Made by a program: the position numbers and the translations under genes
Shown here: in pieces, positions 3,126 to 6,534 of the stretch
How positions within the stretch are numbered: the first letter of the stretch is position 1
How the letters are laid out: every line of letters begins with the position of its first letter
Origin: Nocardioides sp.
Lineage (GTDB): Bacteria; Actinomycetota; Actinomycetes; Propionibacteriales; Nocardioidaceae
Direction of reading: 5' to 3'
NCBI GenBank assembly: GCA_025965335.1
Contig: JAOPXC010000454.1
Location: 1-41,899, forward strand
Length of the DNA: 41,899 bases
The notes under the pieces: generated by a model
Told to the model about the DNA's origin: nothing
Databases searched by the model: none
The model's input: only the letters and a program-made list of their open reading frames with translations

Positions 3126-3502
3126 CCGCGCACGTCCGCTGCGCCCGCGCCTGCCAGTGCCAGGAATGCCAGCTGTTCGAGGTGGGGCCGCCCGGGCCGG
3201 TACCGAGAGAGGTAGTGATGGACGACATCGAACGCTGTGCCCAGCTGCTGGGCATGCGCCGCCGCGAGGTCCTCGAGGTGGTGCCGTCGGCTGACGGCGA
3301 CCTGGTACGCACCCACGACGGGCAGTGGACGCTGATCCGCGACGACGGCGTGCGTGTGGACCGCGTCCCGGCACCGACCACCCTGGTCGACGGCGACGAG
3401 GCAACCAAGGAGATGCTGCGCGGTTTCCACGGCGACGCCGATCCCGAGGATGAGCCGGCCACCAAGCCCGCGCCGAAGCGTCAGAGCCGGGGCCGGGCAT
3501 GA
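3122..3502 (+). CDS. Hypothetical protein with N-terminal Cys motif
   Basis: GTG start with 4-nt overlap of portal stop; CARACQCQEC. Confidence 0.6.
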   Translation: MTAHVRCARACQCQECQLFEVGPPGPVPREVVMDDIERCAQLLGMRRREVLEVVPSADGDLVRTHDGQWTLIRDDGVRVDRVPAPTTLVDGDEATKEMLRGFHGDADPEDEPATKPAPKRQSRGRA

Positions 3503-6500
3503 GCTGGCGGGAGGTCGCCGACGAGCTGGTCCGCGAGTCCGCGCCCGAGCTCGCCGACGACGCCCTCGCCGCGATCGTCGAGGCACTCGAGGACGTCGAC
3601 GTCGACGCCGAGCGCGTTGACGAGGCGGTCGCCGTCGCCCTCGATCTGTGGCTCGCCGACGACGAGCCCGCGGAGGCGCAGGAGTCGGTGGCGTTCGACG
3701 AGACGTTGCACCCGCGTGCGGCTGCCGGAGCCGCGGGCGGCGGGCAGTTCGCCGCTGGCGGCGCCGCGCCCGCGGGGGCCAAGAAGGCGGCGCCGGCGAA
3801 GAAGGCGGCCGCGGGTGGCAAGAACCCGGCCGGGTCGCTGTCCTTCAACGGCAAGTCAGGCCCGGGCTACGGCAAGCCGGGCGGTGACAAGCGGGTCCAC
3901 TCGCTGCAGCAGGCCCTCAACCGGCTCGGCCTCACCGACGCCGCGGGCAAGAAGCTCGTCGACGACGGCAAGCTCGGCCCGAAGACCACCGCCGCGGTGA
4001 AGAAGGCGCAGCGCGCCCTGGGTATGCCCGCCGACGGGGTGGTGACGCCGAAGCTGCTGGCCAAGCTGGTTGCCGCGAAGTCGCTGGCCAAGCCGGCCGC
4101 GAAGGCGAAGCCCGCGGTGAAGAAGGCGGCCAAGCCCGTCGCGAAGGCGGCGGCTCGCACGGCGGCCAAGCCCCGGCCGATGACCACGACGACACGCGAG
4201 GCTGACGCGAGCACCGAGGCGATCGCCGGGCAGCGCTCGGCGGGCGACACCCGGGCGATCCTGCAGGACGCCGTCGACGAGCTGGCCCGTGAGGAGTCCG
4301 GCAACGCGTGGGCGTACGCGCAGGTCCGCGACTACACCGACGAGCAAGTGGTGTACGAGCTGGGCGGCAAGACGTGGCAGGCGCCCTACACGCTCACCGA
4401 GGCCGGGACGACCGGCGAGGCCGCGCTGGGCGACCCGATCGAGGTCGTTGAGCAGACCTGGTACGTGGCCGCCGCCGCGGAGCCTGCCGGTGAGCCGGCG
4501 GTCGACGAGCCGGCGCAGACCGGGTTCTCGCCCGCCGATGACATGGCGGTGGAGAGCCTGTGCCGCATTGACGGCCGCGTGCTGGAGGGCAAGGGCGTCG
4601 ACGCCGCCGGCGGCCGCATCTTCCGGGTGCGGATCATCTCCGCGGGCGACTCCCGCAACGGCCGCCGCTACCCGGCGGGTGTGCTGCAGGAGGCGACGTC
4701 GCTGTACGAGGGCGCGAAGGCGTACGACCATCACCGGTCCACCGAGGAGCTGCGCTCGTCGACGATCACCGGCCTGGTCGGCTACTACCGCAACGTTGAG
4801 GCCAGCGCCCAGGGCCTGGACGGTGACCTGTGCCTGCTGCCCGGGGCCACCCACACGGCCGAGGCGCTGGACGCGACGATCGCCGCCCAGGACCAGGGCC
4901 TGCCGCCGCTGGTCGGTATCAGCCACGACGCGATGACGTCCCTCAAGCCGATCGTCGTCGCTGGCCGCCGCATGCAGGAGGCCACGGCCATCACCAAAGT
5001 CAACTCCGCCGACGTGGTCGCCGACCCCGCCGCCGGAGGCAAGGCCACCCGCGTTCTCGCGGGCGGTATCGAGACCGACCCGGAGACCGACTCCGGAGAG
5101 AACACAAGGGAGTCAGACGTGGTCACGACCACCGACGTGCTCGCCGCGCTGAAGACCGCCACGCCCGAGGATCTTGCCGCGGTCGGTCTCAGTCGTACGA
5201 GCGAAGCAACCGAGCCCGAGGGCATGGAGAAGGCGTCGTTCCTCGGCGGCCTGCTCATCAAGGAGAAGGTGACCGCGGCCGGCCTGCCCGCTCAGGTCGC
5301 CGAGAGCCTGCGCGAGTCGTTGCCGGACCGGATCACCGAGTCCGACGTGGACGCGCAGATCGCGAGCCTCAAGACGGCGCTGGGCCTGGCCGAGCGTTCC
5401 GGGCTCGCCCCGACCGCCACCGCGGCGGTCACGCAGGAGAGCCTGGAAAAGAAGACGGCCGCGCTGGACGCGTTCTTCGCCGGCGACTTCTCCAAGGGTT
5501 ACCGCAGCTTCCGGTCCGCGTACCTCGACATCACCGGCTACCGGCCGCGCTCGATGGACGAGGACCTCAACCGCCGGGTGATGCGCGAGAGCATCGGCGA
5601 CCTCTACGACTCGGGCGACCGGGCCACGGAGTCGCTGACCTCGAGCTCGTGGAACCTGGTCCTGGGCGACTCGGTGACGCGGCGGCTGGTCGCGGTGTAC
5701 GCGCACCCGTCGCTGCAGACCTGGCGTGAGATCGTCTCGTCGACGATTCCCGTCGCGGACTTCCGCACCCAGCGCATCGACCGGGTGGGCGGCTACGGCG
5801 TGCTCCCGGCGGTCAACCAGGGCGCCCCGTACCAGCCGCTGACCTCGCCGACGAACGAGGAAGTCACGTACGCGCTGACCAAGCGTGGTGGCACCGAGGA
5901 CCTGACGATGGAGATGATCGCCAACGACGACGTCCGGGCGATCTCCAACATCCCCAACCGGCTGGGCCTGGCGGCCGCGCGCACGCTGCACAACTTCGTG
6001 TGGGATTTCCTGCAGACCAACCCGACGGTGTACGACGCGCTGGCGCTGTTCCACGCCACGCACAACAACACCACCGCGGTGGCGCTCAGCCAGTCGAACC
6101 TGAGCGCGATTCGGGCGAAGATGCGCGGCCAGACCGCGTACGGCGACAGCAGCGACATCCTGTCGCTGACGCCGAAGTTCCTGATCGTCCCGAAGGAGCT
6201 CGAGGAGCTGGCGTTCCAGCTGACCACCTCGGCGGTGGCGATCCCGGCCACCCCGGCCGGCCCGTCCAACACCCCCAACCTTCACCAGAACATGGTGCCG
6301 ATCGTCGTCGACTACCTGACCGACACCAACGACTGGTACGTCGCGGCGGACCCGTCGATGTGCCCGACGATCGAGGTCGGCTTCTACCAGGGCCGCCAGG
6401 ACCCGGAGCTGTTCACCCAGTCCGACAGCAACGTCGGATCGATGTTCAACAGCGACACGCTGACCTACAAGATCCGCCACATCTACTCGGGCGCGGTCCT

Positions 6501-6534
6501 CGACTACCGCGGCTTCCAGCGCGGGACCCAGTAG
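3499..6534 (+). CDS. Capsid polyprotein: peptidoglycan-binding-like domain, Lys/Ala-rich linker, prohead protease-like region and Mu gpT-like major capsid protein
   Basis: 1011-aa single ORF. VHSLQQALNRLGLTDAAGKKLVDDGKLGPKTTAAVKKAQRALGMPADGVV (PG_binding_1-like); AKPAAKAKPAVKKAAKPVAKAAARTAAK; protease-like SLCRIDGRVLEGKGVDAAGGRIFRVRIISAGDSRNGRRYP; MCP-like LFHATHNN. Confidence 0.82.
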   Translation: MSWREVADELVRESAPELADDALAAIVEALEDVDVDAERVDEAVAVALDLWLADDEPAEAQESVAFDETLHPRAAAGAAGGGQFAAGGAAPAGAKKAAPAKKAAAGGKNPAGSLSFNGKSGPGYGKPGGDKRVHSLQQALNRLGLTDAAGKKLVDDGKLGPKTTAAVKKAQRALGMPADGVVTPKLLAKLVAAKSLAKPAAKAKPAVKKAAKPVAKAAARTAAKPRPMTTTTREADASTEAIAGQRSAGDTRAILQDAVDELAREESGNAWAYAQVRDYTDEQVVYELGGKTWQAPYTLTEAGTTGEAALGDPIEVVEQTWYVAAAAEPAGEPAVDEPAQTGFSPADDMAVESLCRIDGRVLEGKGVDAAGGRIFRVRIISAGDSRNGRRYPAGVLQEATSLYEGAKAYDHHRSTEELRSSTITGLVGYYRNVEASAQGLDGDLCLLPGATHTAEALDATIAAQDQGLPPLVGISHDAMTSLKPIVVAGRRMQEATAITKVNSADVVADPAAGGKATRVLAGGIETDPETDSGENTRESDVVTTTDVLAALKTATPEDLAAVGLSRTSEATEPEGMEKASFLGGLLIKEKVTAAGLPAQVAESLRESLPDRITESDVDAQIASLKTALGLAERSGLAPTATAAVTQESLEKKTAALDAFFAGDFSKGYRSFRSAYLDITGYRPRSMDEDLNRRVMRESIGDLYDSGDRATESLTSSSWNLVLGDSVTRRLVAVYAHPSLQTWREIVSSTIPVADFRTQRIDRVGGYGVLPAVNQGAPYQPLTSPTNEEVTYALTKRGGTEDLTMEMIANDDVRAISNIPNRLGLAAARTLHNFVWDFLQTNPTVYDALALFHATHNNTTAVALSQSNLSAIRAKMRGQTAYGDSSDILSLTPKFLIVPKELEELAFQLTTSAVAIPATPAGPSNTPNLHQNMVPIVVDYLTDTNDWYVAADPSMCPTIEVGFYQGRQDPELFTQSDSNVGSMFNSDTLTYKIRHIYSGAVLDYRGFQRGTQ

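What the first reader, a model, noticed from the sequence alone, without database searches (positions are those of the whole stretch)
3499..6534. Capsid polyprotein carrying a peptidoglycan-binding-like domain and Lys/Ala-rich tail ahead of protease and MCP
One uninterrupted 1011-aa ORF encodes a PG_binding_1-like repeat (about 3895-4074), a histone-H1-like Lys/Ala linker (about 4081-4182), a prohead-protease-like region (about 4555-5020) and a Mu gpT-like MCP (about 5119-6534). Protease-MCP fusions are known in phages, but a cell-wall-binding domain at the front of a capsid precursor is unexpected. It may act as a scaffold, be packaged in the head, or be displayed on the virion.
Basis: partly seen in the sequence, partly recalled or inferred. 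Interest (0 to 1): 0.85.

Follow-up and report, generated by a model that had tools for sequence, protein, structure and literature searches.

The report
Capsid gene carrying basic cargo module
One phage gene encodes the capsid protein, its scaffold, its protease and, at the front, a small basic domain with the fold of a cell-wall-binding domain; the evidence suggests this domain now rides inside the head rather than gripping cell walls, and that a conserved second start site inside the gene lets the phage make many plain capsid proteins and few that carry the extra parts.

Summary
In detail: the 1011-aa ORF carries a PG_binding_1 domain (aa 131-190, E 6e-13), a Lys/Ala tail, a T4-gp21-like protease, a helical scaffold and an HK97-fold capsid protein. 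The architecture recurs in 73 of the 120 best homologues, so it is no chimera. Wall binding is not supported: compared with other PG_binding_1 domains of related genomes, the capsid version has lost conserved aromatics (median 0 vs 4), is basic (+9 vs +1) and forms its own clade. Protease-consensus sites flank it (E62|S63, E240|A241) and would free a 178-aa, pI 10.6 fragment. Nearly the same protein exists as free 150-270-aa genes, once beside a fused capsid gene, once in an unrelated head cluster between minor head protein and scaffold. Best reading: a mobile basic internal-head module delivered by fusion. All evidence is comparative; no protein was observed.

The parts
3499..6534 (+). whole ORF, long product of 1011 aa (module - domain X - protease - scaffold - MCP)
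3122..3502 (+). 126-aa upstream gene; its stop overlaps the ATG of the long product (ATGA), which has no Shine-Dalgarno sequence
3499..3684 (+). acidic helical N-terminal domain (aa 1-62; aa 1-68 carry charge -20)
3685..4218 (+). predicted released basic fragment aa 63-240 (178 aa, charge +22, pI 10.6), flanked by protease-consensus sites E62|S63 and E240|A241
   Evidence: size and charge match free genes
3709..3750 (+). HPRA...GGQF motif (aa 71-84), present in fused and most free forms
3859..4080 (+). extended PG_binding_1-like domain aa 121-194 (Pfam match aa 131-190)
4081..4194 (+). Lys/Ala-rich tail aa 195-232, charge +10
4219..4554 (+). acidic domain X (aa 241-352, charge -17), present in only some relatives
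4555..5112 (+). prohead protease, T4 gp21-like fold (aa 353-538); H412 and S475 invariant, H411 over 90%
5106..5112 (+). internal Shine-Dalgarno-like AAGGGAG, 6 nt before codon 541
5119..5121 (+). conserved internal GTG start, codon 541; predicted short product aa 541-1011 (471 aa)
5119..5631 (+). helical scaffold / delta-like region aa 541-711
5632..6531 (+). mature MCP aa 712-1011 (300 aa, 32.9 kDa), HK97 fold / Phage_capsid_4; predicted cut E711|S712
2424..3122 (+). C-terminal tail module of the portal gene (912-3125), a module that in relatives also sits on the polyprotein N-terminus or in a free PG-module gene

Best explanation
The gene is a head-assembly gene that makes two nested products. 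A conserved internal ribosome-binding site and GTG at codon 541 yields a short scaffold-MCP protein, the bulk shell subunit. Translation from the ATG at 3499, coupled to the upstream gene and without its own Shine-Dalgarno sequence, yields fewer copies of a long protein that adds, in front, a gp21-like protease and a basic module (HPR motif, PG-binding-like three-helix domain, Lys/Ala tail). Because scaffold and MCP assemble the prohead, every long copy brings protease and module into the lumen. The protease then cuts at A/S/T-x-E|S/A sites, freeing the MCP at E711|S712 and the module as a basic fragment of about 178 aa (63-240). The fragment most likely binds DNA or the acidic scaffold parts inside the head, like a T4 internal protein, rather than peptidoglycan. 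Shown: anatomy, conservation, motif statistics, free-standing versions, internal start conservation. Inferred: translation from the internal start, the cuts, lumenal location, retention and DNA binding.
For: Internal start: start codon plus strong Shine-Dalgarno in 92 of 108 aligned loci, synonymous-codon shuffles give mean 41 and at most 49, best other place 16%; Val541 is GTG in 62 of 67 against 40% background, p 1e-19, spacing 5-6 nt in 83. Cleavage: E711|S712 motif in 61 of 62; E[SA] shortly followed by an aromatic just before HPR in 41 of 49 against 8.4 expected; the giant-phage prohead protease gp245 cuts after A-x-E with Ser preferred next (PMC10052503). Module: same kind of protein as free basic genes L085 (204 aa, +24), P0121-P0129, L174; L174 lies between Phage_min_cap2 and scaffold/SU10_MCP genes. 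Charge +9 vs +1 and aromatics 0 vs 4 against other PG_binding_1 domains, one clade 99/98. Portal-tail module exchanged with the polyprotein N-terminus. If all 415 copies were full length, dry upstream protein alone would be about 39,000 nm3, close to a T=7 prohead interior (assumed radii).
Against: No proteomics or ribosome data. The cleavage consensus is borrowed from another phage. The fold is still that of PG-binding domains. The module is absent from many relatives, so it is dispensable. The internal-start region is glutamate-rich, so part of the signal comes from amino-acid sequence (shuffles still give 41 of 108). DNA binding rests on charge alone. Prohead propeptides are generally expected to leave the head (PMC10052503).
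Confidence: 0.58

Rival explanations
1. The module is only a scaffold or propeptide part: it helps assemble or nucleate the core through charge pairing (acidic 1-62 and domain X, basic 63-240) and is chopped up and lost from the head at maturation.
For: Propeptides are generally expected to exit tailed-phage heads, and SPN3US propeptides are cut several times (PMC10052503). Alternating charges -20, +7, +9, +10, -17. Module missing in many relatives.
Against: The PG-like fold and HPR motif are conserved as a unit, including in free genes of a head cluster with no fused protease. No cleavage-consensus peak falls inside the domain in the 62-protein alignment.
Confidence: 0.25
2. The module is a wall-binding virion protein: carried in the head and ejected, or displayed, it binds host peptidoglycan during entry or adsorption.
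For: Unambiguous PG-binding fold; the PG-bearing relatives with named hosts are actinobacterial; a free form exists in a head-gene cluster.
Against: Class-conserved aromatics (Y/F of DG[YF]G, F of FQ) and a Thr near the end are replaced by L, A and L; charge +9 vs +1. Display would need the module to stay on the MCP, but the predicted cut before the MCP is conserved in 61 of 62.
Confidence: 0.14
3. Assembly chimera or chance fusion of an endolysin fragment with a capsid gene.
For: None beyond the odd domain combination.
Against: Full-length homologues at 66-70% identity on separate contigs, dozens with the same Pfam pair; the capsid PG domains form their own clade.
Confidence: 0.01

Closest known systems
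Fused ClpP-protease/scaffold/MCP genes (Pseudomonas phage MD8 gp5, PMC8508860; Fels-1, mEp043, Stenotrophomonas phage S1 as annotated; Gifsy-2 tripartite gene from memory)
   Same: protease, scaffold and HK97-fold MCP in one gene; an SD-preceded start near the protease/scaffold border in the five examined
   Different: here the protease is T4 gp21-like, not ClpP-like, and a basic PG-like module precedes it
Phage Mu and P. aeruginosa Mu-like PaMx73 protease gene with internal scaffold start (PMC4378225); lambda C/Nu3 (Shaw and Murialdo 1980, cited in PMC8508860)
   Same: in-frame internal start producing the scaffold from the 3' part of the protease gene
   Different: here the short product is scaffold fused to MCP, and the long product carries an extra module
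T4 internal proteins IPI-III (from memory)
   Same: small basic proteins in the prohead core, processed by a gp21-type protease
   Different: no sequence relation; there separate genes with an N-terminal targeting peptide, here mostly fused and PG-binding fold
PG_binding_1 domains of wall hydrolases and endolysins (1lbu, SltB3, LysT84)
   Same: sequence family and three-helix fold
   Different: aromatics lost, basic, own clade, sits in head proteins

Membership tests
PG_binding_1 (PF01471) | profile match above the curated cut-off and three-helix fold | tested here: met
   49.2 bits vs 23; top Foldseek hits are PG-binding domains
functional peptidoglycan-binding domain | residues conserved in PG_binding_1 domains of related genomes (Y/F, F, T positions) | tested here: not met
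   alignment columns 31, 42 and 65 changed to L, A, L in most of 73 capsid domains; that these residues contact peptidoglycan was not established
functional peptidoglycan-binding domain | binds sacculi | not testable with these tools
   needs a pull-down
fused protease-scaffold-MCP gene | one ORF with protease fold, helical region and HK97-fold MCP | tested here: met
   5jbl and HK97-fold hits, PF25209, helices 544-700
T4 gp21-like prohead protease | fold match and conserved His and Ser | tested here: met
   5jbl E 1e-6; H412 and S475 invariant in 62; catalytic superposition not done
nested internal-start (Mu I/Z, lambda C/Nu3) arrangement | conserved in-frame start with Shine-Dalgarno at the protease/scaffold border | tested here: met
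   92 of 108 loci
nested internal-start (Mu I/Z, lambda C/Nu3) arrangement | both products made | not testable with these tools
   needs proteomics or ribosome profiling
internal head protein (T4 IP-like) | basic protein in the virion lumen, processed by the prohead protease | tested here: inconclusive
   basicity and flanking sites met; location not testable

The most novel reading that the evidence does not exclude
The front of this capsid gene is a natural cargo slot. Modules (basic HPR-PG module, portal-tail module, DUF6582-type and zinc-ribbon pieces) are swapped in and out, carried into the head on a minority of capsid subunits set by a nested start, and released by protease. The HPR..GGF motif would be a head-targeting or docking tag, since it mostly stays with the module when the gene is free-standing, even in an unrelated head system.
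Probability: 0.3. Interest if true: 0.85.

Novelty: new variant of a known kind. Interest (0 to 1): 0.66.

Why it matters
It shows a wall-binding fold apparently recruited as a basic head protein and carried into capsids by covalent fusion, and it identifies a conserved dual-start design in fused protease-scaffold-capsid genes that would solve the crowding and stoichiometry problem. Both are directly testable, and the slot suggests a natural way to load proteins into phage heads. The module of the window has no match among 50,697 deposited phage records, so it is unstudied. Automatic annotation names many of these capsid proteins 'peptidoglycan hydrolase-like', which misleads.

Tried and rejected
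Chance or chimeric fusion: rejected by homologues. Surface display: disfavoured by the conserved predicted cut before the MCP. Recent endolysin origin: rejected by the capsid clade; the short domain leaves inner forks unresolved, and 'no PG' labels in the tree include a few truncated or mis-started proteins (P0007, P0047), so the count of 11-14 gains or losses is an upper estimate. No other internal start in the N-terminal half passed 40% in the 23 PG-bearing loci. Sampled genomes of the same genus and order hold no copy of the gene, only PG-domain hits. Literature searches found no report of a PG-binding domain in a capsid precursor. Two scans of viral contigs for free modules brought nothing new. 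Searches failed and were redone.

Full report
The ORF and its parts. The 1011-aa ORF at 3499-6534 is open throughout. Pfam finds PG_binding_1 at aa 131-190 and Phage_capsid_4 at aa 713-1007. AlphaFold on a 62-sequence alignment gives confident structure for aa 1-52 (helical), 121-200 (PG-like), 244-320 (domain X), 350-510 (protease) and the scaffold helices, with the linkers unstructured. Foldseek matches the protease to T4 gp21 (5jbl) and the C-terminal part to HK97-fold shells. The PG-like domain modelled alone has PG-binding domains as its nine best PDB matches. The window is a complete circularised phage contig (127-base identical ends) with terminase end, portal, tail genes, integrase and repressor.

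It is a family, not an accident. Among the 120 best homologues, 73 carry the PG domain by a domain profile built here; the rest have other or no N-terminal modules, DUF6582 among them. Across 129 capsid-bearing loci, including the window and its copy, 25 have the fused module. On a tree of the protease-MCP part, PG presence changes about 11 to 14 times, fewer than the 34 of shuffled labels: the module is inherited in clades but is gained or lost repeatedly. Distant relatives in proteobacteria and others have protease-MCP fusions without it.

The domain has left the wall-binding pattern. Compared with 49 PG_binding_1 domains from bacterial proteins of related actinobacterial genomes, the capsid domains have lost the aromatic of DG[YF]G (49 of 49 to mostly Leu), the F of FQ (44 of 49 to mostly Ala) and a near-invariant Thr (48 of 49 to mostly Leu). 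Net charge is +9 versus +1 and aromatic count 0 versus 4 (p 2e-17 and 1e-21, not corrected for relatedness), and they form one clade (99/98) that includes two free-standing copies, L085 and L099. The comparison sample was the top Pfam hits, which favours canonical members. Which residues contact peptidoglycan was not established here, so this lowers wall binding without excluding it.

The module also exists as a free gene. In L085 a 204-aa gene (HPR motif, PG domain, Arg/Lys tail, charge +24) ends on the start codon of a protease-MCP gene that lacks it; in L099 a 584-aa gene adds the portal-tail-like module. A protein search with L085 found nine more free proteins of 152-272 aa with pI 9.9-11.8. 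In L174 the free gene sits between a Phage_min_cap2 minor head gene and scaffold and SU10_MCP genes of an unrelated head system with an SPP1-type portal. The module therefore belongs to heads, not to one polyprotein.

Predicted processing. The motif [AST]xE[SA] is twice as frequent as in shuffles over the whole family (469 vs 213) and peaks at fixed places: 711 (61 of 62), 352, 240, 62 and others. The sites before the HPR motif and after the PG domain exceed local shuffles. A published prohead protease, SPN3US gp245, cuts after A-x-E and prefers Ser next (PMC10052503); DRATE|S of the window fits. The fragment 63-240 (178 aa, +22, pI 10.6) closely matches the free proteins in start, size and charge. 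Some peaks (455, 647) lie inside conserved folded regions and are probably structural, not cuts.

Internal start. Scanning all alignment columns for an in-frame start with a Shine-Dalgarno sequence gave one standout, codon 541: 82% of 107 loci, next column 15%. The codon is GTG in 62, ATG in 26 and TTG in 1; surrounding amino acids vary while AGGAG-type sequence and 5-6 nt spacing stay. Synonymous shuffling gives 41 of 108 on average and never more than 49, against 92. The upstream ATG at 3499 has no Shine-Dalgarno sequence and overlaps the preceding stop; its nearest relatives also lack one. Precedents are Mu, PaMx73 (PMC4378225) and lambda C/Nu3; here the short product is scaffold fused to MCP. 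Five ClpP-type or related fusion genes also show such a site 454-498 residues before their ends, so the design may be general. A rough volume estimate says 415 full-length copies would nearly fill a T=7 prohead (radii assumed), which a nested start would relieve.

Location. The portal C-terminal tail module of this phage also occurs at the N-terminus of the capsid polyprotein in L105, P0009 and P0016 and in the free PG gene L099. Portal C-termini and MCP N-termini both face the lumen in known phages (established knowledge), so exchange between them points to the interior. The identity of the partner, DNA or acidic scaffold, is inference from charge.

Verdict. Observation confirmed; wall-binding interpretation not supported; best reading is a mobile basic internal-head module on a minority long capsid product, with retention in the virion undecided.

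Noticed in passing
window 5106-5121; L169-L173: Conserved internal Shine-Dalgarno and start at the protease/scaffold border; similar sites in the fusion genes of Fels-1 (codon 220), mEp043 (211), S1 (207), MinM1 (223) and Mae-JY22 (274), leaving 454-498 residues. Not annotated in those records.
   Followed up: partly
window 2424-3122; L059, L066, L076, L099, L105, L110, L116: A mobile module at the portal C-terminus, of unknown function, that moves to the polyprotein N-terminus or into separate genes.
   Followed up: partly
L174:4897-5391: Free HPR-PG-basic gene between minor head and scaffold genes of an SPP1-portal/SU10-MCP phage.
   Followed up: yes
window 4219-4554: Acidic domain X (helix plus antiparallel sheet, pLDDT about 95), present in only part of the family; no known match was sought or found.
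   Followed up: no
P0045, P0048, P0067 and others: Other N-terminal pieces of the capsid gene: DUF6582 (PF20223) and zinc-ribbon-like CxxC stretches ending in VRVTES.
   Followed up: partly
PHROG 1224: A PHROG family named endolysin but filed under head and packaging matches only the PG domain; it may hide further head proteins of this sort.
   Followed up: no
window 1-127 and 41773-41899: Identical 127-base ends: circularised assembly, so the phage may not belong to the host bin it was placed in.
   Followed up: partly
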